NCBI GenBank assembly: GCA_934247125.1
Contig: CAKQIZ010000037.1
Span: forward strand, 1-18,629
Reading direction: 5' to 3'
Length of the DNA: 18,629 bases
Origin: an uncultured Clostridia bacterium
GTDB taxonomy: Bacteria; Bacillota; Clostridia; Peptostreptococcales; Anaerovoracaceae
Shown here: in pieces, positions 183 to 14,860 of the stretch
Position numbering within the stretch: the stretch's first letter is position 1
Layout: each line of letters opens with the position of its first letter
Notes under the pieces: generated by a model
Database searches by the model: none
What the model was told of the DNA's origin: nothing
Seen by the model: the letters and a program-made list of their open reading frames with translations, nothing else
Made by a program: the position numbers and the translations under genes

Positions 183-239
183 CAGAAACCACCGGCTATG
201 CCGGTGAGGATAGGAAACTTGAGTTTTAGGCAAAAAACA

Positions 240-302: not shown

Positions 303-334
303 ATGAAAGACAATAACAGTTTAGCACACACAAA
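303..334 (+). pseudogene. tnpA: IS200 transposase TnpA, 5' part (split gene)
   Basis: ATG at 303 lies 7-9 bases after GGAGGAG and encodes MKDNNSLAHT plus two bases of codon 11. This is the usual N-terminus of clostridial IS200 transposases. The frame then runs into the inserted element and stops at TAG within a few codons. The rest of the gene resumes at 1794. Joining position 334 to 1794 recreates an AAG lysine codon followed by WNCKYHIV, giving 153 residues, the expected family length. Confidence 0.85.
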
Positions 335-358
335 AGTACAGTTTACAAGGGTCTACAC
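333..358 (+). repeat. Left attachment half-site of the inserted element
   Basis: It consists of core AA (333-334), spacer AGTA, then CAGTTTACAAGG (339-350), two bases, and CTACAC (353-358). It is the inverted partner of 1768-1793. The equal four-base spacers on both sides of the core argue for a recombinase-recognised site rather than a chance repeat. Confidence 0.75.
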
Positions 359-391
359 AGGGTAGGTATCTGACGGGAGGGGTTCTGCCCG

Positions 392-535
392 TCAGATTTT
401 CCATGTGATGTTCAAACTGTCGCTTGTGGCGGCTATGATGGTAATCATCAAGTCCATCATCCGCCGCTTGTCGTCAAAGGATACATTCTCCCAGGTGTCG
501 AGGTAGCCGTAAATCTGGCTGACCTGTTCCAGCAG
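392..535 (-). pseudogene. 3' end of a large serine recombinase gene (truncated)
   Basis: On the minus strand a 47-codon frame ends at TGA (394-392). It reads LLEQVSQIYGYLDTWENVSF, followed by DDKRRMMDLM and a close ending in NITWKI. The pattern of a helical linker, W-x-x-(L/V)-S-F-(E/D)-(E/D)-K-R, an aliphatic stretch and a final WKI is how many large serine recombinases of clostridial elements end. Just upstream in the gene's sense there is a TAA (538-536), and homology disappears into unrelated DNA, marking a deletion joint. The resolvase domain and catalytic serine are absent, so it is non-functional. Its stop lies about 55 bp from the element edge, the normal place for an element's own integrase. 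Confidence 0.65.
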
Positions 536-610
536 TTAGCGAAGAAGATGATTAAGCAGGTGGGAAAGTAATCATAAAGAGTAAAGAGAAAAAAGGAAAT
601 AAAATTCTCG

Positions 611-639
611 TTGTCCGCAAAAAGATAGTGTGATATAAT
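611..639 (+). promoter_or_regulatory. Promoter of the methyltransferase gene
   Basis: A -35 box TTGTCC (611-616) is separated by 17 bases from a consensus -10 TATAAT (634-639), preceded by TGA to form an extended -10. It lies inside the inserted element, so the cargo gene is independently transcribed. Confidence 0.75.
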
Positions 640-677
640 GTGGTTAGCTAAAGATAACTATGAAAGGAGCATTGTGT

Positions 678-1301
678 ATGTCTTTTTTTCAAAATACTTG
701 TAAGCCCAAAGGGATTGGCGGCAAAATTATGGTTAATATGATGAATACCGGACATTCATCTATGGCTGAATGGGGATTTACGCATATAGAAATTAGAAAT
801 AATTACATATGTCTGGATATTGGGTGTGGCGGTGGAGCAAATGTAAAAAAGCTATTGGCAAAAACTCCATACGGCAAAGTGACAGGTATTGATTATTCAG
901 AAATTAGTGTAATAAAATCCCAAAAAATCAATAAGGCAGAAATAGAAAATAGGCGTTGCGAAATCTTGCAAGGTAATGTAATGAAACTTCCTTTCGGAAA
1001 TGAAACTTTTGATATAATTACTGCGTTTGAAACAATATATTTTTGGCCTGATATTAATGAGGCATTTAAGCAAGTATATCGAGTTTTGAAAGGCAGCGGA
1101 ACTTTTATGATTTGCAACGAATCAAATGGCGAAAATTCCAAAGAAGAAAAGTGGACTAAGATTATACAAGGAATGAAAATATACAATTCTGGACAAGTCA
1201 AAAAATCTTTAGAGGGTGCTGGTTTTACAGACATAAAAATACACAAAAATGAAAAAGGCTGGCTCTGCGTAGTTTGTAAAAAAGATAAAGATGTAAATTA
1301 A
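678..1301 (+). CDS. Class I SAM-dependent methyltransferase (mobile-element cargo)
   Basis: The 207-residue protein has a Rossmann-type SAM-binding fold. Motif I is LDIGCGGG (residues 46-53), the acidic strand-2 end is GIDYS (70-74), and motif IV-like LPFGNETFDII follows near 104-114, in the Methyltransf_11 style. The substrate cannot be named; a small molecule or antibiotic target is possible, but no specificity motif is recognisable. The ATG at 678 is chosen because AAGGAG lies 8-9 bases before it; an in-frame ATG at 660 has no ribosome site. The gene is clearly more AT-rich than the chromosomal genes around it, consistent with horizontal arrival. It is the only intact gene of the inserted element, and it runs opposite to the recombinase remnant. 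Confidence 0.85.
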   Translation: MSFFQNTCKPKGIGGKIMVNMMNTGHSSMAEWGFTHIEIRNNYICLDIGCGGGANVKKLLAKTPYGKVTGIDYSEISVIKSQKINKAEIENRRCEILQGNVMKLPFGNETFDIITAFETIYFWPDINEAFKQVYRVLKGSGTFMICNESNGENSKEEKWTKIIQGMKIYNSGQVKKSLEGAGFTDIKIHKNEKGWLCVVCKKDKDVN

Positions 1302-1767
1302 CTATTGTCCACCCATTCAGCGGGACGGTGGGCGGCGGTCAAGGCCGGGTGTAAACTCGTTCGTTTCAACCTTGACGCTTGCCCGCTGCCCTGCTACTTT
1401 TCTGGGAATGTGGCCACACTTCGGGACACTTTGTCCACAAGTCGGAGCGTAGGTCGAGGGACGGGGGGCTTTCATATACGCCCTGTCTGCTGATGAAACC
1501 AGACCTGCGCTTGCGGCTCCACGCCACGCAAGCACAGCCCTGTTTTCCTGCCGCTTCAAATGCCCTTGCCCTCCCCGGCGGCAACGGCATTTTCACGGCA
1601 ACGCCGACAGAGCGTATAACATACTACACTTTGCTACGCAAAGTCGTGTGCCAAAGGGGTACCCTTTGGAAACCCCAAACAACAAAACAGGCTGAATATC
1701 TCGCACTTTCCCGGTGCTTGATACTCAGCCTGTATTTGTTGTCAGCAGCCTCCGTTTCGTGGTCTGC
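1302..1767. other. Non-coding, G+C-rich Tn1549-like tail of the inserted element
   Basis: No convincing gene is seen here. Several frames stay open on both strands, but none has a ribosome site or a recognisable fold, and their composition is that of overlapping spurious frames. The G+C content rises sharply from the AT-rich cargo gene. The sequence reminds me of spacer DNA near the mobilisation genes of Tn1549-type conjugative elements, though this is memory of pattern and not a comparison. Confidence 0.4.
1628..1732. repeat. Cluster of three hairpins, possible origin-of-transfer relic
   Basis: Three consecutive inverted repeats occur: ACTTTGC/GCAAAGT (1628-1644, perfect, loop TAC); CCAAAGGG/CCCTTTGG (1651-1669, perfect, loop GTA); and CAGGCTGAATATC/GATACTCAGCCTG (1688-1732, 12 of 13 pairs). 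On the minus strand the first is followed by a GTGTAGTATGTTATAC stretch, like nick regions near relaxase genes in Tn1549-type elements. No relaxase is present. The third stem alone could act as a terminator. Confidence 0.45.
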
Positions 1768-1793
1768 GTGTAGTTCCTTGTAAACTGACCTAA
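1768..1793 (-). repeat. Right attachment half-site of the inserted element
   Basis: GTGTAG (1768-1773), two bases, CCTTGTAAACTG (1776-1787), spacer ACCT, and core AA (1792-1793) form the inverted partner of the left half-site, with two mismatches in 20. The host tnpA frame resumes with G1794 and TGG. Confidence 0.75.
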
Positions 1794-2223
1794 GTGGAAT
1801 TGTAAGTATCATATAGTGTTTGCCCCAAAGTATCGTAGGAAAGTGATTTATGGAAAAATACGGGCTGACATTGGGAAGATATTAAGATTATTATGTGATC
1901 GAAAAGGAGTAGAGATCATTGAAGCCGAATGCTGTCCTGATCATATCCATATGTTGGTAAGAATACCGCCAAAGTATAGTGTTTCCTATATTGTTGGATA
2001 TCTCAAAGGGAAAAGCTCACTGATGATTTTTGATAGACATGCAAATTTAAAATACAAGTATGGGAACAGACATTTCTGGTGTCGGGGTTACTATGTAGAT
2101 ACAGTTGGAAAAAACACAAAGAAAATAGAAGAATACATACGTACACAATTGCAGGAAGATATTGCTGAAGATCAAATATCCATGAAAGAGTATATAGATC
2201 CATTCGTGCAAAATAAGGAATAA
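1794..2223 (+). pseudogene. tnpA: IS200 transposase TnpA, 3' part (split gene)
   Basis: This part encodes the catalytic body of a Y1 HUH single-strand transposase. Numbered on the rejoined 153-residue protein, it has the metal-binding HIH at 61-63 (in CPDHIHMLV) and the nucleophilic tyrosine 125 in EEYIRTQ. All key residues remain, so only the insertion after codon 10 disables it. An internal GTG at 1816 could begin a shortened 135-residue product, but no ribosome site precedes it and the first beta strand would be lost. The absence of decay in this 142-codon stretch suggests the insertion is recent or still reversible. Confidence 0.85.
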
Positions 2224-2339
2224 CCCTTTAGGGTTTGTAGAGAAGTTAGTGCACTTGGCGAACTAATTCAGCGCATCTTGAGATGCTGCTGGCAACAGAC
2301 CCTTCTAGGGTCTAAACATACCGCCGGCTGAGCCGGCGG
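2222..2339 (+). repeat. Hairpin array at the IS200 right end
   Basis: Four perfect stems follow the tnpA stop: AACCCT/AGGGTT (2222-2235), GCATCT/AGATGC (2273-2286), AGACCCT/AGGGTCT (2297-2313) and CCGCCGGC/GCCGGCGG (2321-2339). The last matches the position of the family's right-end recognition hairpin. The others suggest a folded 3' transcript. No U-run follows, so this is not a simple terminator. Confidence 0.65.
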
Positions 2340-2472
2340 TTATGATTTAAAAGGAAGCCATCTGCCGCATTGCTGGCAAGAGGCCGGTATCGCATCAGAG
2401 AAACACGAACAGGCTGAAAATCGTGAACGGTTCCTTTGCGCAAAACTGCAGGTTACGTTACGTAAAACCCTC

Positions 2473-5590: not shown

Positions 5591-7870
5591 ATGCTGTTCA
5601 GGAAATTATGGAGGACTATGGGGCTGTACAAAGCGCAGTTCATCTCGATGATACTGATGGTCGCTCTGGGAGTCGGGATCTTCGTCGGCTTCAATATGGA
5701 GTGGTACAGCATAGACAAAAATACGAGCGCTTTCTTTGAAGAGACCGACTTTGCGGATTACAGGATCGTATCGCAGCAGGGATTTTCGAAAGATGATGTC
5801 GACAAGATAAAAGATCTTGATGAAGCGGAAACGGCGTCGAGGTTCATTTCCGTGCAGGCTGATGTAAAGGGCGAGAAGGGAAAATCCCTGGCGCTGACTG
5901 CGGTCGAGGATGAAGGGATATCGGATTTCAAGCTGATGAAGGGTGAAAAATACGACCCGGAAAGCAGCGACGGGATCTGGCTTTCTGACAAGTATGCCGC
6001 TGCCAACGATGTTAAGATCGGCGATGAGATGACGCTTTCATACAGAAATCTGGAGATAAGCGGAAAAGTGAAGGGGCTGATCAAGTCGTCGGAATATCTG
6101 ATCTGCGTGCGCGATGAGACGCAGCTGATGCCGGATCTGGAAACGTACGGCTATGCGTATATATCGCCGGCGATGTACGAGGATGCAGTCGGAATGGATT
6201 TTTATCCGCAGATAAATGTTATATCTGACAGTGGCAGGAAAGCATTCACCGAGGCTGTCGACGATGCGCTGGGCAAAACAACGCTCATACTTACAAAGGA
6301 TGAAAACATATCTTATTCGGGAGCGACAGGTGAGTCCGATGAAGGCAAGACGATGGGATCGATACTGCCTGTGCTGTTCCTGCTGATCGCGATACTGACT
6401 ATGGTCACGACTATGCACAGGCTGGCAGCACAGGAAAAGACACAGATCGGAACACTGAAGGCGCTCGGCTTCAAGGACAGACGCATACTCAGACACTACA
6501 CCTCATACGCGTTCATGGTAGCAGCGGCAGGTTCGGCCGCCGGTATCGCACTGGGATATTTCGTAGCGTGGTTCATCATGAATCCGGACGGCTCGATGGG
6601 TACATATCTGGATATGCCGGAGTGGAAGCTCTGCATGCCGTGGTTCTGCAGCGTGATCATCATAGCGCTGATCGTTCTGATGACTCTGATAGGATACCTT
6701 TCTGTGAAGAAGATGCTTCAGGGAACAGCTGCGGATGCGCTGAGACCGTATGCACCGAAGAAGATGAAGAAGCTTCTCATAGAAAAGACCTCTATCTGGG
6801 AGAAATGCGGCTTCGGTACGCGATGGAACCTCAGAGATATCATGAGACACAAGACGAGGACGCTGATGAGCATGACAGGCATCGTGGGCTGCACTTTGCT
6901 GATGGTCGGATCGCTGGGAATGAGAGATACGATGGAGGGATTCTTGGAACTCTACTATAACGGCGCCTCTAACTATTCGTCATGCATCCATGTTGCGGAG
7001 GATGCCACTGATGCGCAGAGACAGGAGCTTCTCGACAGGTATGACGGGGATTACAGCGGCTCGGTGAGCGTACAGATAGAAGACAAGGCTGTGGCACTCG
7101 ACATATACAGCGTGGAAAACGACAGAGTGCGCTTTCCGGATATAGAGAACGGTTATGAAAAGATAGGCGACAGCGGAGCGTATGTGTGCAAGAGGATTGC
7201 TGACGAATACGGCCTTGAAAAAGGCTGCCGTATCACGGTGAGTCCGTACGGATCTGATGACGAGTACGAACTTCGCATAGCAGGTGTGATAAGGTCTGTT
7301 TCGGAAAATATCGTGATCTCGCCGGAATATGCTGACAAGCTCGGCATAGGATATTCGATCGATTCGATATATACCGGTACAGACAAGAAAGATGTGGATA
7401 AGGACAGCAGTATCTCCAGTGTACAGTCAAAACAGTCTATCATGGATTCGTTCGATACGTTCATGGAGATAATGAACATGATGCTCGCCGTGCTCATAGT
7501 CGCAGCTGTGATACTCGGTATAGTCGTGCTTTACAATCTTGGAGTGATGAGCTATACTGAGCGATACCGCGAGATGGCGACGCTGAAAGTCGTAGGATTC
7601 AAGGACAGGGAAATAGGCAGGCTGCTGGTAAGTCAGAATATGTGGGTGACGGTTATAGGAATAATCATAGGCATACCGGCGGGAAGAGCTGTGCTGAAGT
7701 ATCTGCTCGATGCGATGGCTTCCGAGTATGAAATGAGGCTGATGACAGGTGCAGGCACTTACCTGTTCAGCACCCTGATGACACTGGCAGTGTCTCTGTT
7801 TGTAAGCCTGATGATAGCGAGGAAGAACAGAAAGATAGACATGGTAGAGGCGCTTAAAGGCGCAGAATGA
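5591..7870 (+). CDS. ABC transporter permease, FtsX/MacB type with eight helices
   Basis: The 759-residue protein is a tandem of two FtsX-like units. Helix 1 is near residues 15-35, followed by a large extracytoplasmic domain to about 250 (MacB periplasmic-core-like) and helices 2-4 around 255-370. Unit two repeats this, with helix 5 near 420-440, a second external domain to about 640 and helices 6-8 to the end. The cytoplasmic loops GTLKALGFKDRRI and ATLKVVGFKDREI are the same segment in both halves, evidence of internal duplication and the likely contact to the ATPase. An upstream ATG at 5573 overlaps the ATPase gene; the ATG at 5591 is preferred because GGAG (5580-5583) lies seven bases before it. 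Substrate unknown. The genes appear co-transcribed; the end lacks an obvious terminator. Confidence 0.92.
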   Translation: MLFRKLWRTMGLYKAQFISMILMVALGVGIFVGFNMEWYSIDKNTSAFFEETDFADYRIVSQQGFSKDDVDKIKDLDEAETASRFISVQADVKGEKGKSLALTAVEDEGISDFKLMKGEKYDPESSDGIWLSDKYAAANDVKIGDEMTLSYRNLEISGKVKGLIKSSEYLICVRDETQLMPDLETYGYAYISPAMYEDAVGMDFYPQINVISDSGRKAFTEAVDDALGKTTLILTKDENISYSGATGESDEGKTMGSILPVLFLLIAILTMVTTMHRLAAQEKTQIGTLKALGFKDRRILRHYTSYAFMVAAAGSAAGIALGYFVAWFIMNPDGSMGTYLDMPEWKLCMPWFCSVIIIALIVLMTLIGYLSVKKMLQGTAADALRPYAPKKMKKLLIEKTSIWEKCGFGTRWNLRDIMRHKTRTLMSMTGIVGCTLLMVGSLGMRDTMEGFLELYYNGASNYSSCIHVAEDATDAQRQELLDRYDGDYSGSVSVQIEDKAVALDIYSVENDRVRFPDIENGYEKIGDSGAYVCKRIADEYGLEKGCRITVSPYGSDDEYELRIAGVIRSVSENIVISPEYADKLGIGYSIDSIYTGTDKKDVDKDSSISSVQSKQSIMDSFDTFMEIMNMMLAVLIVAAVILGIVVLYNLGVMSYTERYREMATLKVVGFKDREIGRLLVSQNMWVTVIGIIIGIPAGRAVLKYLLDAMASEYEMRLMTGAGTYLFSTLMTLAVSLFVSLMIARKNRKIDMVEALKGAE

Positions 7871-8260
7871 TAAAAAAGTCGTGCAGTGCGGGATACGCAT
7901 AGCACAGGACTGCATACAGAGCGATCCGCTGAATACAGAGATATACGGGATCCGGACGCTTGGCAAGATGATGTTTCGTTTTTGGCCGGGTTGAGTTATA
8001 ATGCAGTATATGAACAGGAGATTGCGAAATACGATTCTGATCGTTGTGATGCTGTGAACGATCCGTGGACGTCGGGATCGTCAAATATATACTGAAGCCG
8101 ATAGAACCGCAGCAGCTCGAAGAAGCACTGCTGAAATGCGACAGGGGAACAGTACAGACCGGCGGCAAGTGAGATCAATACAAGAGCGTGCAGCGACTGG
8201 CTGTGCTTTGAAAAGATATGAATATAGCTGTAGAAGTCTTTCGGAAGGGGGCAACAACAA
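7871..8260 (+). other. Gene-poor stretch with a decayed response-regulator fragment
   Basis: These 390 bases hold no intact gene. A consensus TATAAT (7997-8002) lacks a good -35 box. A 69-codon open frame at 7886-8095 has no ribosome site. The readable content is a receiver-domain remnant at 8050-8172. No terminator with a U-run is seen after the permease gene. Confidence 0.5.
8050..8172 (+). pseudogene. Response-regulator receiver domain remnant
   Basis: A frame ending at TGA 8170-8172 reads VKYILKPIEPQQLEEALLKC and then a short tail. The K-P after two aliphatics, then an acidic-rich alpha-5 helix, is the hallmark of the conserved lysine region at the end of receiver domains (compare DYLLKPVxPEEL). 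Nothing upstream in any frame shows the phospho-acceptor aspartate; the frame is closed by a TGA at 8047-8049, and no output domain follows. It is therefore a C-terminal fragment of a lost regulator, perhaps one that governed the preceding ABC transporter. Confidence 0.55.
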
Positions 8261-9049
8261 ATGGAAGACATACTGGTAAGAAAAGAAGGACACATAGCAT
8301 TCGTGACGATCGATCGTCCGAAAGTACTGAACGCATTCCGTTCACAGACTCTCAGGGAGCTGACTGAAGCGGTGATCGCGGCGGGAAGTGATCCCGATAA
8401 TTACGTGATAATACTGAACAGCTCTATAGGCAAGGCGTTCACAGCAGGCGGCGATATAAACGAGGAAAGTCAGCTGACCGAAGAGACAGCGGCGGATTTT
8501 TCGAGAAGAGGGCAGGCATGCGCCATGGCGATATACAACAGCCCTGTTCCTGTGATCGCGGCAGTGGACGGATATGCGCTGGGCGGCGGTATGGAACTGA
8601 TACTTGCAGCTGATATAACGATCGCTGCAAAGACTGCAAAGATCGGCGTGCCGACGATAAATCTCGGAGGCATACCGTGCTGGACTGCAACGCAGCTGCT
8701 GCCGAGGATCGTGGGACCGTCGTGTGCTGCGGACATACTGCTGACTGGCAGGATGCTTAGCGCGGAGGAGTGCTACAGGCTCCATCTGGTAGAGTATCTG
8801 ACGGAAAAAGATGAGCTGATGGACAAGGCGATGGAGGTCGCATCGGTGATCGCAGACAAATCGCCTAACGCTGTCAGACTGATGCGCCAGGCGATCAAGC
8901 AGGGGCTGGAGCTGCCGCTGCAGGATGCGCTCGGACTGGAGCAGGAGCTGTTCGCAGAGTGCTACAGGAGTGACGACAGGGCTGAGGCTGTCACGGCATT
9001 CCTTGAGAAGAGACCGCATAAGCCGTACAGGAATCGTGACGGGAAATAA
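8261..9049 (+). CDS. Enoyl-CoA hydratase/isomerase (crotonase) family protein
   Basis: This 262-residue protein has the crotonase fold. The oxyanion-hole segments are AFTAGGDI (59-66) and ALGGGMEL (106-113), and the CoA-binding N-terminal strand IAFVTIDRPKVLNAF (12-26) is intact. Compared with mammalian enoyl-CoA hydratase, the two catalytic glutamates are replaced. The GxPEI motif reads GVPTI (Thr132), and the second glutamate position is Asp158 in CAADILLTG. The usual GGTQ loop reads CWTATQLL. Classical hydratase chemistry is therefore doubtful; an isomerase, decarboxylase, thioesterase or other acyl-CoA reaction is more likely. GGAAGGGGG lies about 11 bases before the ATG. No beta-oxidation partner genes are next to it. 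Confidence 0.85.
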   Translation: MEDILVRKEGHIAFVTIDRPKVLNAFRSQTLRELTEAVIAAGSDPDNYVIILNSSIGKAFTAGGDINEESQLTEETAADFSRRGQACAMAIYNSPVPVIAAVDGYALGGGMELILAADITIAAKTAKIGVPTINLGGIPCWTATQLLPRIVGPSCAADILLTGRMLSAEECYRLHLVEYLTEKDELMDKAMEVASVIADKSPNAVRLMRQAIKQGLELPLQDALGLEQELFAECYRSDDRAEAVTAFLEKRPHKPYRNRDGK

Positions 9050-9080
9050 CAGTAAATAAACGCGAATAAAAACAAAGAAA

Positions 9081-9158
9081 AAAGAGCTGATACAGGCTGC
9101 ATCAGTCATATGGTATGCTCCCTTTTGGGGGTGTGATGCAGCCGGACAGCTCTTTTTT
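9081..9158. terminator. Bidirectional terminator between convergent genes
   Basis: AAAGAGCTG...GGCTGCATCA pairs with TGATGCAGCC...CAGCTCTTT, giving two stacked stems. The plus side ends in TCTTTTTT and the minus side runs into a run of A residues read as U. It can stop both the crotonase transcript and the hydCBA transcript. Confidence 0.85.
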
Positions 9159-9217
9159 CGTGTCATCAGTGCCATTAATGAAGGCTTTAATGTTTGAGGT
9201 CGATCATTATTTCATTA

Positions 9218-10960
9218 TCAGTCTCTGTAACTTTTCCTAGGCCTGTAGTGCGTGTGGAGCAGCTGGTGAGCCTTGCTGCCGTTTGCCATACCGAGGAAGT
9301 CCTTGTACAGTCTCTTGACTGCAGGATTGTTATGGGATTTTCTGATATATGTGTTTCTGTCTTCCCTGTACAGCCCTTTTGCTCTCTCTTCCTTGATGTC
9401 GATCCAGTTGCGCACATCTGAGAGCTGGAGCGGCTGACCGCCTCCGTTGATGCAGCCGCCGGGACATGCCATGATCTCTACGAAGTGGAATTCTTCACCG
9501 GCTTCGATGGCATCCATCAGTTTTCGGGCATTGCCGAGTCCATGAGCCACTGCAGCACGGATGTTGAGATCGTTGATCTTTATCGAAGCAATCTTGATGC
9601 CTTCAAGCCCGCGTATATCTTCGTACTCGAAGTTGTCCGCAGAGCTTCCTGTTAGCAGATCGGACACGGTCCTCAGTGCAGCCTCCATAACGCCGCCTGT
9701 GGTGCCGAATATCACGCCGGCGCCTGACGCGTTGCCGAACGGTGTATCGAAATCGCTGTCTCCGAGGTCAGGAAAATCTATACCGGAGTCGTATATCATC
9801 GTAGCGAGCTCTCTCGTCGTGATGACGATATCGACATCAGCCAGACCGTTCACTGACATTTCAGGTCTTGCAGCTTCGAATTTCTTGGCAGTGCAAGGCA
9901 TTACCGATACGACTACGATATCTTCAGGATCTATGTCGTTTTTCTCAGCATAATACGTTTTCAGGATGGCGCCGAACATCTGGTGCGGTGATTTGCATGT
10001 CGACAGGTTGTCGAGCATGTCAGGATAATTGTGTTCGCAGAACTTTATCCATCCGGGTGAGCACGATGTTATCAGAGGAAGCTTGCCGCCGCCTCTTATC
10101 CTGTCGATCAGCTCCGCACCTTCTTCCATTATCGTCAGATCGGCGCCGGTATCTGTATCGAACACCTTGTCGAATCCCAGCATCCTCAGCGCTGTCACCA
10201 TCTTGCCGGTGACAGGAGTGCCTATAGGCATGTCGAAGTCTTCGCCGAGTGCGACTCTGACTGCCGGAGCTGTCTGTGCGATGACATGCTTTGAAGGATC
10301 GTGTATAGCTTCCCATACCTTATCCATGTCTCTCTTTTCGCGGAGTGCGGCCACAGGACATACATTGATGCACTGACCGCAGTTGACACAAGGCGTATTG
10401 CTGAGCGACATATTGAACGGTGATGCCACCTGCGTATTGAAGCCTCTGTTCACAACATCTATAACGCCGACCGTCTGCACGTTTTTGCATACGCTGACGC
10501 ACCTTCTGCAAAGTATGCACTTGTTCGGATCCCTCACGATTGAGGTGCCTATATCCAGAGGCATCTTCTTGCTCTCTCCTTCAAAGCGCACTTCTCCGAC
10601 TGACAGCTTGTTTGCCAGAGCCTGGAGTTCGCAGTCCATCCAGCTTCGCGAGCATGTCTGGCATCTCGCATTGTGGTTCGAAAGTATGAGCTCGAGGTTG
10701 ACCTTTCTCGCTTCCATTACCTTAGGTGTGTGAGTGTATACCTCCATGCCTTCTGAAACCGGATGTACACATGCAGCCTGCAGTGCACGGGCGCCCTTTA
10801 CTTCAACGACGCACATCCTGCAGCAGCCGATCTCGTTGATGTTCTTGAGGTAGCAGAGCGTAGGTATGTTGATGTTCACTTCCTTTGCAGCCTCAAGTAT
10901 CGTATAGTTTTCCGGAACATATAAATTAATGCCGTCTATTGTTATATTCACTTTGTTCAT
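9218..10960 (-). CDS. hydA: [FeFe]-hydrogenase catalytic subunit HydA (NADH/ferredoxin-linked, trimeric type)
   Basis: This 580-residue subunit makes or oxidises H2 at the H-cluster. Domains in order are: an N-terminal [2Fe-2S] ferredoxin-like domain (C36, GCCRMC 45-50, C64); a His/Cys [4Fe-4S] region (H96, C100, C103, C110); two [4Fe-4S] clusters (CILCRRCVSVCK 148-159, CVNCGQCINVCP 191-202); the H-cluster domain with L1 TSCSPGW (298-304), L2 MPCTAKKFEA (354-363) and L3 MACPGGCINGGGQP (497-510); and the C-terminal small-subunit tail. L1 has serine where the textbook motif TSCCPxW has its second cysteine. The size fits the shorter M3 layout without an extra C-terminal [2Fe-2S] domain. GGAGG lies 11 bases before the ATG, and the gap after hydB is 22 bases. 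Confidence 0.95.
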   Translation of the reverse strand: MNKVNITIDGINLYVPENYTILEAAKEVNINIPTLCYLKNINEIGCCRMCVVEVKGARALQAACVHPVSEGMEVYTHTPKVMEARKVNLELILSNHNARCQTCSRSWMDCELQALANKLSVGEVRFEGESKKMPLDIGTSIVRDPNKCILCRRCVSVCKNVQTVGVIDVVNRGFNTQVASPFNMSLSNTPCVNCGQCINVCPVAALREKRDMDKVWEAIHDPSKHVIAQTAPAVRVALGEDFDMPIGTPVTGKMVTALRMLGFDKVFDTDTGADLTIMEEGAELIDRIRGGGKLPLITSCSPGWIKFCEHNYPDMLDNLSTCKSPHQMFGAILKTYYAEKNDIDPEDIVVVSVMPCTAKKFEAARPEMSVNGLADVDIVITTRELATMIYDSGIDFPDLGDSDFDTPFGNASGAGVIFGTTGGVMEAALRTVSDLLTGSSADNFEYEDIRGLEGIKIASIKINDLNIRAAVAHGLGNARKLMDAIEAGEEFHFVEIMACPGGCINGGGQPLQLSDVRNWIDIKEERAKGLYREDRNTYIRKSHNNPAVKRLYKDFLGMANGSKAHQLLHTHYRPRKSYRD

Positions 10961-10982
10961 TTTTTACGCGACCTCCTTCATA

Positions 10983-12872
10983 TTATGCGTTCTTGAGAAT
11001 GGACTTGAACGGACATTTTTCCATACAGATGCCGCACTTGACGCATTTATCCTGATCGATAACGAATGGAGTGTTTTTGTCGCCCGAAATAGCACCGGCA
11101 GGGCAGTTCTTCTTGCAGATGCTGCAGCGCTTGCAGGTGCTTTCGAAGATGATGTATCTCACCATGGATTTGCATACGCCGGCAGGACATTTCTTGTCGA
11201 CTACGTGTGCCATGTATTCATCTCTGAAGTATCTCATCGTGGAAAGGACAGGGTTAGGTGCTGTCTGGCCGAGTCCGCAGAGGGCCGAGGCCTTGATGTT
11301 CCTGGCTAGGATCTCAAGCTTTTCGAGATCTTCGACCTGGCCTTTTCCTTCTGTGATCCTCGTGACGATCTCAAGCATCCTCTTGGTGCCGATCCTGCAC
11401 GGAGGACATTTGCCGCATGATTCATCGACCGTGAACTCCAGGAAGAACTTGGCCAGATCGACCATGCAGGTGTCTTCGTCCATTACGATCAGACCGCCTG
11501 AGCCCATCATCGAGCCGAGTGCGATGAGAGAATCGTAGTCTATAGGAGTATCGAGTTCGGATGCAGGTATGCAGCCGCCTGACGGACCGCCTGTCTGCGC
11601 CGCCTTGAATTCCTTGCCGTTAGGTATGCCTCCGCCTATATCGTAGATGATCTCGCGAAGAGTCGTTCCCATAGGGATCTCCACAAGACCTGTGTTGTTT
11701 ATCTTGCCTCCTACAGCGAAAACTTTGGTTCCTTTTGACTTTTCAGTACCGATGTTTGCGAACCATTCCGCACCCCTGAGTATTATCATCGGGATATTTG
11801 CATATGTTTCAACGTTGTTCAGTATCGTAGGCTGTCCGAACAGACCCTTGACTGCAGGGAAAGGCGGTCTTGGCTTAGGCTCGCCGCGGTGTCCTTCGAC
11901 AGAAGTCATCAGTGCAGTCTCTTCGCCGCATACGAAAGCACCGGCGCCGAGTCTGACGTCGAGATTGAAGTCGAAGCCTGTGCCGAATATGTCTTTGCCC
12001 AGCAGTCCGTATTCTCTGGCCTGGTTTATCGCGATCGTGAGTCTTTCAACGGCGATTGGATATTCAGCTCTGACATAGACGTAACCCTGGTTTGCTCCGA
12101 TGGCATATCCGGCGATAGTCATCGCTTCTATAACTGAGTGAGGGTCGCCTTCGAGGACTGATCTGTCCATGAATGCGCCGGGGTCGCCTTCATCGGCATT
12201 GCAGCAGACATATTTCTGTGCGATCTGCTGAGAAGCGGCAAAGGCCCATTTAACACCTGTCGGGAAGCCTCCGCCTCCGCGTCCTCTGAGCTGAGAATCC
12301 TTTATCGTATCTATGACGTCTTCAGGCTCCATCTTAGTGAGGACTTTTTCAAGTGCCAGGTATCCGTCGCGCGCTATGTATTCATCGATGTTCTCAGGGT
12401 TTATCGCACCGCAGTTCCTGAGTGCGACACGTTTCTGTTTCGAGAAGAAATCGACATTCTCGAGAGCGTTTTCGATCTTTTCGGCTTCCTTGTCTCCGGC
12501 CAGAAGTCTTCGTACAGGAGCACCGTTCTTGATGTGACTTTCGAAGATCTCGTTCACATCTTCCGGCTGGACCAGAGTGTACATGATGTGTTCGGGATAG
12601 AACATCATGATGGGGCCTTCTGCGCAGAGCCCGAAGCATCCTGTCTTGATGATCTTGATGTCATCTTCGAGCTGGTTTATCTTGATCAGGATTTCCAGTC
12701 CCTCGATGATCTTCATGGAGCCTGAGGACGTGCATCCTGTTCCTCCGCATACCATGATGTGCATTTTTCCGCCTTCTTTAGTAGGCGATGCATCCGGGTT
12801 TACACGGATCATGAGGTCGGCCTGTTTGCTTTCTCTTATTCTATTGATATCCGCAATGCTTTTTATCATCAT
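10983..12872 (-). CDS. hydB: Hydrogenase subunit HydB (NuoF-like, NADH- and FMN-binding)
   Basis: The 629-residue protein accepts or donates electrons to NAD(H) through FMN. A thioredoxin-like [2Fe-2S] domain comes first (C42, C47, C79, C83). The NuoF core has the FMN loop RGRGGGGFPTG (196-206), the NADH loop GAGAFVCGEETAL and the N3-type cluster ESCGKCPPCR (484-493). A C-terminal bacterial ferredoxin domain has two [4Fe-4S] sets (C580/583/586/590 and C610/613/616/620). This order is that of HydB of bifurcating hydrogenases and of NADP-reducing relatives. Two adjacent ATG codons follow AGGAGG, at 12872 and 12869; the second has the better seven-base spacing, so the product may be one residue shorter. 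It is the middle gene of hydCBA, eight bases after hydC. Confidence 0.95.
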   Translation of the reverse strand: MMIKSIADINRIRESKQADLMIRVNPDASPTKEGGKMHIMVCGGTGCTSSGSMKIIEGLEILIKINQLEDDIKIIKTGCFGLCAEGPIMMFYPEHIMYTLVQPEDVNEIFESHIKNGAPVRRLLAGDKEAEKIENALENVDFFSKQKRVALRNCGAINPENIDEYIARDGYLALEKVLTKMEPEDVIDTIKDSQLRGRGGGGFPTGVKWAFAASQQIAQKYVCCNADEGDPGAFMDRSVLEGDPHSVIEAMTIAGYAIGANQGYVYVRAEYPIAVERLTIAINQAREYGLLGKDIFGTGFDFNLDVRLGAGAFVCGEETALMTSVEGHRGEPKPRPPFPAVKGLFGQPTILNNVETYANIPMIILRGAEWFANIGTEKSKGTKVFAVGGKINNTGLVEIPMGTTLREIIYDIGGGIPNGKEFKAAQTGGPSGGCIPASELDTPIDYDSLIALGSMMGSGGLIVMDEDTCMVDLAKFFLEFTVDESCGKCPPCRIGTKRMLEIVTRITEGKGQVEDLEKLEILARNIKASALCGLGQTAPNPVLSTMRYFRDEYMAHVVDKKCPAGVCKSMVRYIIFESTCKRCSICKKNCPAGAISGDKNTPFVIDQDKCVKCGICMEKCPFKSILKNA

Positions 12873-12880
12873 TCCACCTC

Positions 12881-13375
12881 CTAAAGCTTGTCGAATCTGT
12901 CGATTATGCCGTCGACGTCATCAGGCACCAGTTTGCCGAAGACCTCGTCGTTGATCGTCACTACAGGTGCCAGTCCGCATGCTCCGATACAGCGGCACGC
13001 ATCGAGAGAGTATCTGCCGTCTTCCGTACATTCTCCGACATCGATCGAAAGCCTTGTCTTGAATTTGTCAAGGATATCGTTAGCCCCCTTGACATAGCAT
13101 GCAGTACCCATGCATACGTTGATCTGGTACTTGCCTTTAGGATTTATGGAAAACTGTGTGTAAAAGCTTACTACGCCGTATACCTCGGCCAGAGGGATCT
13201 CCAGCTTTTCAGCGATATCTCGCTGTACTTCAAGCGGCAGGTAGCCGTATATTTCCTGCGCTTCGTGGAGTACAGGGATGAGTGCGCCCTGAGTATCTTT
13301 GTACTTTGCAATGATTTCGTCTAGTTTTGCAGCGTTTTCTTTCGCTGTGGTACACATCGTGCAACTGTTGCTCAT
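12881..13375 (-). CDS. hydC: Hydrogenase subunit HydC (NuoE-like [2Fe-2S] protein)
   Basis: The 164-residue thioredoxin-fold ferredoxin passes electrons in the HydABC complex. The [2Fe-2S] ligands are C88 and C93 (CMGTAC) and C129 and C133 (CIGAC), in the C-x4-C...C-x3-C order of NuoE. The helical N-terminal part, including the YGYLPLEV segment, is complete. The start at 13375 is preferred to upstream ATG codons because AAAGGAG lies six bases before it; the longer reading would extend into the promoter. The extra CTMC pair at residues 5-8 is unusual and could be a redox or metal site, or have no role. It is the first gene of the operon. Confidence 0.94.
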   Translation of the reverse strand: MSNSCTMCTTAKENAAKLDEIIAKYKDTQGALIPVLHEAQEIYGYLPLEVQRDIAEKLEIPLAEVYGVVSFYTQFSINPKGKYQINVCMGTACYVKGANDILDKFKTRLSIDVGECTEDGRYSLDACRCIGACGLAPVVTINDEVFGKLVPDDVDGIIDRFDKL

Positions 13376-13435
13376 GCAAATCTCCTTTCGTGGGTTACGT
13401 GATTCTGAAAATTGCGATTTTTGGAAACTATCCAT

Positions 13436-13465
13436 ATAATACAATTATTCTCAACAAGCTGTCAA
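13436..13465 (-). promoter_or_regulatory. Promoter of the hydCBA operon
   Basis: On the minus strand a consensus -35 TTGACA (13465-13460), an 18-base spacer and TATTAT (13441-13436) precede hydC by about 60 bases. The spacer begins with TTGTTGA, which resembles one half of a Rex operator, but the other half is not recognisable. Confidence 0.75.
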
Positions 13466-13493
13466 TAAAAAAGGAAGGCATATTACTGAAAAT

Positions 13494-13536
13494 CGTTAAA
13501 AAAATATCCGGAGATGCGAACAGGCGCATCCCCGGA
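13494..13536 (-). terminator. Intrinsic terminator of the flavoprotein gene
   Basis: TCCGGAGATGCG (13507-13518) pairs with CGCATCCCCGGA (13525-13536) over 11 of 12 bases. Read on the minus strand, ATATTTTTTT follows. It lies about 130 bases after the flavoprotein stop and just ahead of the hydCBA promoter, separating the two minus-strand transcripts. Confidence 0.8.
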
Positions 13537-13669
13537 ATGTGGCAGATCTTTATCACGTTTTAAAAGAAAGATGATGAAAGTGATGTGTTTTTTTTTGATG
13601 GCAAAAACGCTACATATGTAATCGTTTATGAATCTGTACATAGTATAGGACCGCCAGCCTGCAGTCATA

Positions 13670-14860
13670 TCAAACTGTCCGGGCTATATCGTCTGCGGCA
13701 GCACATGCAGATGAATATGCGAACTGCAGATTGTAGCCGCCGGTGATGCCGTCGATGTCCAGTGCTTCTCCTATGACATAGACCCCCGGGAGTTTTTTTG
13801 CCTGCATAGTCGACAGATCGATACACGAAAGATCCACACCTCCGCTTGTGCACATGGCTTTACTGAAGCCTGACACGGAGCTGATCTCAAAAGTCTCTCC
13901 GGTCAGCTGCGCGGCAAGCCTTTTAAGTGATTCGCCGTACCGGGACGTCAGCAGCTGGCAGAAGCGCTTAGGCAGGCCGAATTCATCGGCGATGACATTG
14001 GAAAGCCTGGAGCTGCTTTGATGGGCAGCTTTTTTGAGTCTGCTGAGGACGGTATCCCGGTCGAGCGGATGCAGATAGCTGATCTGTATCGTATCGTCCG
14101 GTGCAGCATATTTGGATATGTTCAACACGGCAGGACCTGACAGATCGTTGTGTGTAAAGAGCAGGCCGCCGGAGTTTGAGGCTTCTTTCCTGCCGCCTTT
14201 AAATATGGAAACCGCAGCATTTTCGAAAGAGATACCTGAAAGCTCGCCGTACGGGTAGTTCGTCACATGGACAGATGACAGTGCGGGCTTTAGTTCCGTG
14301 CATCTGAGTTTGAGGTCGCGCTCTAGGATGCGGAATATCGAGCCGTCCGAGCCTGTGCGTGGATATGAGCAGCCGCCGGTCGCGATAACAAGCGTTTTCG
14401 TGTCGAACAAACGCCCTGATGACAGCACTGTCCAGCCATGCGGTCTCTTTTCGATCTTTTCCGCAGGTGAATCGTATTCTATGGAAAAACCGCACTCTCT
14501 GCTTCTGCGGAGCAGCATATCGAGCACGTCATGCGCGTCCATAGATGCCGGGAAGACCTTGCCGTCTTCCCGGGTGACCACAGGCACGCCGCCGCTTTCC
14601 ATAAACCCGGTCAGCGATGTGTTGCTGTAGCGGTAGAGACATTTTCTGATCCTGCCGCCGTGCTTGCCGTAGCAGTCGATGAAATCCTTGATGGAGCCGG
14701 CGTGTGTTATATTGCACTGTCCGCTGCCGCTCATCAGCAGCTTTGTGCCGGGATGTTTTGTCTTTTCCAGAATGAGGCCTCTGACGGCTCTGCTCATCGA
14801 GGCACTGCAGAACAGGCCTGAGGCGCCTGCGCCTGCTATTATACAGTCATATATCATCAT
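13670..14860 (-). CDS. NAD(P)/FAD-dependent oxidoreductase, HI0933/BaiN family
   Basis: The 396-residue flavoprotein has the N-terminal FAD dinucleotide fold GAGASG (10-15). The family stretch KLLMSGSGQCNITH (40-53) follows, then ATGG (about 160-163) and the C-terminal FAD contact GGYNLQFAYSSA. These features define the HI0933-like family, which includes BaiN, linked to bile-acid reduction in gut Clostridia, and proteins of unknown role such as YhiN. The family name should not be read as proof of bile-acid activity. Two ATG codons (14860, 14857) follow only a weak AGGT, so translation may be modest. It forms a single-gene transcript with its own terminator, divergent from the chloride transporter gene. 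Confidence 0.88.
   Translation of the reverse strand: MMIYDCIIAGAGASGLFCSASMSRAVRGLILEKTKHPGTKLLMSGSGQCNITHAGSIKDFIDCYGKHGGRIRKCLYRYSNTSLTGFMESGGVPVVTREDGKVFPASMDAHDVLDMLLRRSRECGFSIEYDSPAEKIEKRPHGWTVLSSGRLFDTKTLVIATGGCSYPRTGSDGSIFRILERDLKLRCTELKPALSSVHVTNYPYGELSGISFENAAVSIFKGGRKEASNSGGLLFTHNDLSGPAVLNISKYAAPDDTIQISYLHPLDRDTVLSRLKKAAHQSSSRLSNVIADEFGLPKRFCQLLTSRYGESLKRLAAQLTGETFEISSVSGFSKAMCTSGGVDLSCIDLSTMQAKKLPGVYVIGEALDIDGITGGYNLQFAYSSACAAADDIARTV

What the first reader, a model, noticed from the sequence alone, without database searches (positions are those of the whole stretch)
303..2223. A serine-recombinase-type element sits inside an IS200 transposase gene with attachment sites that would restore the gene on excision
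Both junctions carry AA, flanked at equal four-base distance by 20-bp inverted half-sites matching 18 of 20. Deleting from one AA to the other (1459 bp) rejoins codon 11 as AAG and yields a 153-residue TnpA with all catalytic residues. A symmetric attP-like site with a non-palindromic 2-bp core is the signature of large serine recombinases. An IS200 tnpA gene as the integration target would make a mobile target, since the element could ride on copies of the insertion sequence. I do not know a described element with this target.
Basis: partly seen in the sequence, partly recalled or inferred. Interest (0 to 1): 0.82.

Follow-up and report, generated by a model that had tools for sequence, protein, structure and literature searches.

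The report
Serine-integrase element inside IS200 transposase
A small gene-carrying DNA element has slotted itself into the transposase gene of a bacterial jumping sequence, and relatives from many gut bacteria have landed at the same base of the same gene, so one kind of mobile DNA is repeatedly using another as a landing site.

Summary
Window 335-1791 is an insert between AA dinucleotides in an IS200 tnpA gene; its ends carry inverted half-sites (18 of 20), and joining the flanks gives a 153-residue TnpA. It is an internally deleted, non-autonomous derivative of a family of integrative mobilizable elements (503-residue large serine recombinase, MobV relaxase, AA core). It keeps both ends, the recombinase's last 47 codons and a SAM methyltransferase cargo, but no recombinase or relaxase. 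A nearly identical derivative (99.2%) sits at the same site of a different IS200 (67% identical), so it probably moved after the deletion. A database scan found 27 of 38 left ends at this same tnpA base, but its pattern favoured such hits. In samples not chosen by target, 6 of 37 genomes with the family had the insertion in IS200 tnpA, mostly genomes rich in IS200. Identical recombinases also sit at unrelated sites: this is a multi-targeting integrase with IS200 tnpA as a recurrent hot spot, not an IS200-dedicated one. Riding on IS200 transposition is not shown. New variant of a known kind; my nine answered literature searches listed no description of this target.

The parts
190..206 (+). Left-end (LE) subterminal hairpin of the IS200 copy
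   Evidence: DNA fold of 180-225: -8.2 kcal/mol, z -3.5; role as LE inferred from position
303..334 (+). 5' piece of the IS200 tnpA gene (codons 1-10 and the first two bases of codon 11), ending in the left AA core 333-334
335..1791 (+). Inserted element: non-autonomous derivative of a serine-recombinase integrative mobilizable element
   Evidence: ends defined by comparison with 57 left and 26 right junctions; whole-element comparison
339..358 (+). Left inverted half-site CAGTTTACAAGG-gt-CTACAC
392..535 (-). 3' remnant of the large serine recombinase gene (47 codons and stop, ending ...DSLNITWKI); left-end homology to full elements stops at about 530
   Evidence: translation and coordinates; same C-terminus as 503-residue recombinases; 88-95% DNA identity over element positions 1-196 in the six distinct full-length versions compared
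521..528 (.). GACCTGTT at the deletion joint between recombinase 3' end and the segment ahead of the methyltransferase (apparently the tail of an XRE-regulator ORF, 521-571 +)
   Evidence: W, L049 and L199 printed side by side; coordinates and 16-codon tail; the regulator reading is inference
660..1301 (+). Class I SAM-dependent methyltransferase cargo (Methyltransf_11; substrate unknown; alternative start at 678)
1305..1791 (+). Conserved right-end block of the element family
   Evidence: 91% to L049 over 386 bases, 77% to L125 over 521; partial copies in other mobile elements
1768..1787 (-). Right inverted half-site CAGTTTACAAGG-aa-CTACAC
1792..2223 (+). 3' piece of the IS200 tnpA gene, starting with the right AA core 1792-1793
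2317..2344 (+). Right-end (RE) hairpin of the IS200 copy
   Evidence: DNA fold of 2308-2345: -13.3 kcal/mol, z -5.3; role as RE inferred from position

Best explanation
The insert is an internally deleted, non-autonomous member of a family of serine-recombinase integrative mobilizable elements of gut Clostridia. Full-length members (6.8-13.7 kb measured) encode a 503-residue large serine recombinase at the left end; the one annotated in full also has a MobV relaxase, regulators and cargo. The recombinase joins a symmetric attP (half-site, 4 bp, AA, 4 bp, half-site) to AT-rich attB sites by exchange at a 2-bp AA core; it accepts many sites, but the start of IS200 tnpA (codons for SLAHT-K/W) is a site it uses again and again. 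In the window's lineage a deletion between the recombinase 3' end and the segment ahead of the methyltransferase removed recombinase and relaxase, leaving a 1457-bp element with both ends. That derivative was later moved in trans into at least two different IS200 genes, and would need an intact relative's recombinase to leave; excision at AA would leave an uninterrupted tnpA reading frame. Shown by sequence: anatomy, family, recurrent target, shared deletion joint in two different IS200s. Inferred: catalysis by this recombinase, trans mobilisation, excision.
For: Ends and core. Recombinase tail in the window and 503-residue recombinases in relatives, with Resolvase, Recombinase and Zn-ribbon domains in the one scanned. 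MobV relaxase in L125. Recurrent target: 27 of 38 scan loci at the same tnpA base; 9 of 9 of these whose right end was recognised on the same locus or fetched contig have tnpA on both sides; 31 IS200 left flanks fall in 28 sequence groups. Samples not chosen by target: 2 of 18 ends (17 genomes) in Oscillospirales, 4 of 19 genomes in Lachnospirales, 0 of 2 ends (1 genome) in a phylum-wide sample; together 6 of 37 genomes (95% interval 6-32%). IS200 insertions occur where IS200 is abundant: in the 34 genomes with counts, after taking off one match for the interrupted copy itself, 5 of 10 genomes with at least 3 matches against 1 of 24 with fewer (p 0.005; rank test p 0.0005). Independent motif: a matrix from 32 left and 14 right non-IS200 half-sites puts the four complete IS200 sites scored in the top 0.16-0.91% of 1868 AA sites. 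Trans movement: window and L017 elements identical at 1445 of 1456 aligned bases with the same joint, while the tnpA 3' pieces agree at 286 of 425.
Against: No excision or integration was measured. The motif does not fully explain the hot spot: IS200 left half-sites score like ordinary sites of the family (median 0.96% of background sites score as well, against 0.54% for other targets left one out), and the right halves worse (median 3.4%), so neutrality of the target, copy number or an unmodelled feature must add to it (matrix of 46 half-sites, background from one 16-kb stretch). The scan was built to favour CAY codons before the core. In six IS200 loci of that scan with 4.3-10.3 kb of contig beyond the left end no right end was recognised, and in G033 the only recognised right end, on another contig, is not in tnpA. 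Two of the six IS200 cases in the unselected samples (G999, G1036) are decayed tnpA copies recognised from a short stretch. The 99% identity in two IS200s could come from homologous recombination instead of trans integration.
Confidence: 0.88

Rival explanations
1. The element uses a recombinase dedicated to IS200 tnpA, i.e. a site-specific integrase for which IS200 is the only natural target (the strong form of the first reader's view).
For: 27 of 38 scan hits at one base of tnpA.
Against: Recombinases with identical protein sequence sit in IS200 (L125, L055) and at three other sites (L039, L116, L119); the 7.6-kb elements L055, L116 and L119 are at least 99.97% identical to L125. In the samples not chosen by target 31 of 37 genomes have the insertion elsewhere.
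Confidence: 0.04
2. The element and its IS200 form one composite that spreads by IS200 transposition (TnpA supplied in trans), which would explain many copies at the same internal position.
For: IS200 end hairpins remain in the window; genome G004 holds two decayed copies each in an IS200, whose tnpA pieces group weakly (support 68).
Against: The interrupted tnpA genes are diverse (28 groups among 31 flanks), and even near-identical 7.6-kb elements (L055, L124, L125) sit in different tnpA sequences, the opposite of what one spreading composite gives; in G004 both interrupted tnpA copies are closer to uninterrupted copies than to each other.
Confidence: 0.06
3. Window and L017 share their element through homologous recombination between IS200 copies rather than through recombinase-mediated movement of the deleted derivative.
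For: Same position in both, and 84% identity (27 of 32) in the short tnpA 5' piece gives some homology for a crossover.
Against: Identity is 99.2% inside and 67% from the right core on; on the left it is 84% over the 32-bp tnpA 5' piece and 68% above the gene. The change coincides with the AA cores, which homologous recombination would not favour.
Confidence: 0.08

Closest known systems
Tn4451/Tn4453-type mobilizable transposons (TnpX), and Tn6104 of Clostridioides difficile
   Same: Serine recombinase, 2-bp target/core, relaxase (MobV for Tn4451), low integration specificity, Clostridia (PMC5704250 and PMC3158075, passages read)
   Different: Recombinase here is 503 residues (TnpX is longer, recalled); a solved TnpX catalytic domain (2mhc) matches residues 3-109 only; core AA; the window copy has lost recombinase and relaxase; recurrent target IS200 tnpA
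Multi-targeting large serine recombinases (Durrant et al. 2022, PMC10083194, passages read)
   Same: One recombinase at several unrelated targets sharing a dinucleotide core and AT-rich arms
   Different: No DUF4368; that paper's target-gene Pfam enrichment left out the multi-targeting clade, and its main text does not contain the word IS200 (0 occurrences; supplements not seen)
IME_Rho_tet (PMC12904643, abstract and passages read)
   Same: Serine-recombinase integrative mobilizable element of gut Bacillota with inverted terminal repeats and one gene family hit preferentially (MAFF2, 116 of 256 sites in that paper); also a class I SAM methyltransferase among its genes
   Different: Other target, tet genes, mobC accessory gene; I did not compare the sequences of the two elements
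IStrons (IS605-type IS with a group I intron; PMC4227781, search listing only)
   Same: A second kind of mobile element associated with an IS200/IS605-type element
   Different: IStrons splice at RNA level; here a DNA element with serine-recombinase sites interrupts tnpA

Membership tests
Integrative and mobilizable element with serine integrase | Ends with att sites sharing a 2-bp core | tested here: met
   AA at both junctions of the window copy; 35 of 36 left and 7 of 8 viral-contig right ends of the family found without AA in the pattern
Integrative and mobilizable element with serine integrase | Encodes its own integrase | tested here: not met
   Window copy has only a 47-codon 3' remnant; a 503-residue ORF in 18 of the 20 relatives whose ORF was at least 400 residues. 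So the window copy is a derivative, not itself such an element
Integrative and mobilizable element with serine integrase | Encodes a relaxase | tested here: not met
   No relaxase among the ORFs of 335-1791; MobV in relative L125
Integrative and mobilizable element with serine integrase | Excision and mobilisation observed | not testable with these tools
   needs reads or PCR
Large serine recombinase (full-length relatives) | Resolvase + Recombinase + zinc-ribbon domains, about 500 residues | tested here: met
   L125 recombinase, all three Pfam domains over cut-off
Multi-targeting large serine recombinase | One recombinase sequence at more than three different targets | tested here: met
   100% identical protein in L125, L055 (IS200) and L039, L116, L119 (other, mutually different sites)
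Multi-targeting large serine recombinase | DUF4368 (present in 63% of that clade, PMC10083194) | tested here: not met
   not among Pfam hits; not a strict requirement
IS200 (target) | Y1/IS200 TnpA with end hairpins | tested here: met
IME_Rho_tet | Integration mostly in MAFF2 genes; tet gene cargo | tested here: not met
   window target is tnpA and its cargo a methyltransferase; L125 carries a Mef(A)-like transporter; whether any scattered target is MAFF2 was not examined

The most novel reading that the evidence does not exclude
IS200 tnpA serves as a self-multiplying landing pad: a multi-targeting serine-recombinase element family gains broad host range and multiple sites per genome by using a conserved protein-coding stretch of another mobile element, silences that IS in doing so, and supports a class of MITE-like deletion derivatives (window 1457 bp, L017 1583 bp, G004 1770 bp) that move in trans and may also be carried when the interrupted IS200 is mobilised by an intact sibling.
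Probability: 0.22. Interest if true: 0.72.

Novelty: new variant of a known kind. Interest (0 to 1): 0.52.

Why it matters
It gives a natural, testable hot spot for a relaxed-specificity serine recombinase: one nucleotide in a gene that can be present in many copies in gut Clostridia. If the attB reaction is confirmed, it explains how such elements find a harmless home in distant hosts, offers a defined att pair for a compact 503-residue recombinase, and shows how elements that carry resistance-like or methyltransferase cargo interact with, and interrupt, insertion sequences.

Tried and rejected
Rejected: a dedicated IS200 integrase (identical recombinases elsewhere). Rejected: chance inverted repeat (same ends bound elements in many genomes). 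Tried without result: whole genome of the window (none held); Rfam on the window at gathering scores (0 families); methyltransferase relatives in viral contigs (none confirmed); naming the methyltransferase (NCBIfam models shown all below cut-off). Inconclusive: whether two decayed IS200-borne copies in G004 come from two insertions or from one composite.

Counting. IS200 was called from a five-residue motif upstream or a six-residue motif downstream of the element, or by eye for decayed copies. The first classification of the scan hits mislabelled three loci (L037 and L043 wrongly IS200, L027 missed); one search replaces it. Dropped: G003 (centre of the Oscillospirales sample) and G028 (centre of the other two); L082 (no AA) and the right end of L001 (AG) were left out of the motif matrix. 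In the Lachnospirales sample 54 of 392 genomes matched some part of the element. I first read ends of 15 genomes (14 readable; G1030 not), plus G002 and G004 already held; on recheck I added G1030 and two genomes first overlooked, G937 and G1060, whose ends are more diverged; none of the three is in IS200, so the count went from 4 of 16 to 4 of 19, and the total from 6 of 34 to 6 of 37. G1123 (core TA) and G1074 (ambiguous, counted as not IS200) are in the 19. Genomes matching only inner parts were not read further. The IS200 copy counts cover 34 of these 37 genomes; one match per insertion genome was taken off for the interrupted copy itself, checked by position for G765 and G771 only. An earlier test with a threshold of four matches, chosen after seeing the counts and without that correction, gave p 0.0005; the corrected figures replace it. 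In one search nine or ten IS200 sites were meant to be scored whole, but only four had both halves under one name.

Only open-licence papers are held, and I read passages of four papers only (PMC10083194, PMC3158075, PMC12904643 with its abstract, PMC5704250).
Full report
What is there. The window holds an IS200 copy with a hairpin near each end (190-206 and 2317-2344). Its tnpA gene starts at 303 and is broken after the second base of codon 11. The break is filled by 335-1791, with AA on both sides. Four bases inside each AA lie inverted half-sites that match 18 of 20. Joining the flanks gives an uninterrupted 153-residue TnpA.

What the insert carries. On the minus strand near the left end, 47 codons (392-535) encode the tail of a large serine recombinase. 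A class I SAM methyltransferase occupies 660-1301; near relatives of it are in metagenome protein clusters with hundreds of members. The right 487 bases are a block shared in part with other mobile elements. There is no intact recombinase and no relaxase.

Family. A scan of viral contigs for the end motif returned 16 stretches, and a plasmid search returned the same insert in Subdoligranulum variabile record OY725857.1 (L017). A scan of GTDB species genomes for the left end preceded by CAYNNNAA gave 38 stretches. Eleven full-length relatives with both ends on one contig measure 6773 to 13727 bp. A 503-residue recombinase ORF was read in 18 of the 20 relatives that had an ORF of at least 400 residues there. 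One relative, L125, was annotated in full: recombinase with Resolvase, Recombinase and zinc-ribbon domains, MobV relaxase, RepA_N protein, Cys-rich VLP protein, XRE regulator and a Mef(A)-like transporter that stays below that model's cut-off. L119, L116, L055, L124 and L117 are at least 99.9% identical to L125 over 7.6 kb; by the record titles of their genomes the six come from five genera, Anaerostipes, Neglectibacter, Fusibacillus (two copies), Negativibacillus and Roseburia.

Core and motif. Among ends found by patterns without AA, AA stands between element and chromosome in 35 of 36 distinct left flanks and 7 of 8 distinct right ends of viral contigs; the exceptions are L082 and L001 (the latter identical to L004). 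Outside the AA the non-IS200 targets share T-rich bases about 11-13 positions from the core on the left and A-rich bases at the mirrored place on the right, as expected for two recombinase subunits binding a symmetric site.

The IS200 hot spot. Of the 38 scan loci, 27 lie in IS200 tnpA at exactly the window's base and 11 elsewhere. For the 9 of these 27 whose right end was recognised on the same contig, all 9 right flanks are tnpA too. Where left and right ends lie on different contigs, G010 and G015 have tnpA on both, G033 does not; six further IS200 loci have 4.3-10.3 kb of contig without a recognised right end. The 31 IS200 left flanks collected make 28 groups at one mismatch. Because the scan pattern favours CAY codons, I took samples not chosen by target. 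Oscillospirales: 394 genomes, 18 ends in 17 genomes after dropping the centre, 2 in IS200. Phylum-wide: 398 genomes, 2 ends in one genome after dropping the centre, 0 in IS200. Lachnospirales: 392 genomes, 19 genomes with a readable end after dropping the centre, 4 in IS200, two of them decayed tnpA copies. In all 6 of 37 genomes (95% interval 6-32%). The insertions fall in genomes with many IS200 matches: counting 34 of the 37 genomes and taking off the interrupted copy itself, 5 of 10 with at least three matches against 1 of 24 with fewer (p 0.005; rank test p 0.0005). Half of the 30 genomes have no IS200 match.

Why there. A matrix built only from non-IS200 targets ranks the four complete IS200 sites scored in the top 0.16-0.91% of 1868 AA sites, the window's own site at 0.91%. 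IS200 left halves have a median rank of 0.96%, right halves 3.4%, other targets left one out 0.54%. That makes IS200 a good target but not an exceptional one by this small matrix, so the motif does not by itself explain 6 of 37. Harmlessness of the target, copy number and features missed by a 46-sequence matrix are the likely remainder. This is the main unexplained point.

Not an IS200-only integrase. Recombinases identical in all 503 residues are found in elements inside IS200 (L125, L055) and at three other places (L039, L116, L119); one genome (G034) carries the 7.6-kb element both in IS200 and elsewhere. In the terms of Durrant and colleagues this is a multi-targeting recombinase, although it lacks DUF4368.

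How the derivative arose and moved. The left 196 bases match full-length relatives; from position 184 on, the sequence matches a segment ahead of a methyltransferase in genome G1099 (85% over 777 bases). The parents share GACCTGTT, or nearly so, at the joint, which lies at window 521-528, so a deletion at a short repeat is likely (inference). L017 has the same joint and 99.2% identity over the aligned element, plus about 124 bases after the methyltransferase that the window lacks, while the tnpA 3' piece around it is 67.3% identical and the 32-base 5' piece 84%. The simplest reading is that the deleted derivative was integrated, in trans, into two different IS200 genes.

Within one genome. G004 has two short decayed copies, each in an IS200. 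Uninterrupted IS200 copies of the same genome run across the site within a base or three, an independent view of the empty site. Both interrupted copies are closer to uninterrupted ones than to each other, but a tree groups them weakly (support 68), so two insertions or one duplicated composite cannot be told apart.

Verdict. The window copy is a defective passenger of a multi-targeting integrative mobilizable element family, not a complete recombinase element, and the idea that it rides on IS200 transposition remains open.

Noticed in passing
L152 (AP025982.1, Campylobacter jejuni plasmid), 7001-14252; also NZ_CP028186.1: The same left end and a recombinase sit on plasmids of Campylobacter jejuni; in the first, aadE lies about 6.6 kb further in. 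The family therefore crosses phyla.
   Followed up: no
L018, L019, L020 about 8001-8400: The right-end block of the window element lies about 100 bases after aadE in Lactobacillus amylovorus, Subdoligranulum and Pusillibacter records.
   Followed up: no
L055, L116, L117, L119, L124, L125: A 7.6-kb element at least 99.9% identical in genomes of five genera, carrying in L125 a Mef(A)-like transporter below that family's cut-off: recent wide transfer.
   Followed up: partly
window 1305-1675: This inner right-end block matches many genome stretches whose match does not reach the terminal half-site, so it looks like a separate module of unknown role.
   Followed up: no
G999: One Lachnospirales genome has at least 99 IS200 tnpA matches, many with stops.
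   Followed up: no
L223 (G1060) about 430-500 on the minus strand: A related right block ends in a half-site of the other type, CCTTGTAAACCGTACT, instead of ...ACTGACCT: a variant terminus.
   Followed up: no
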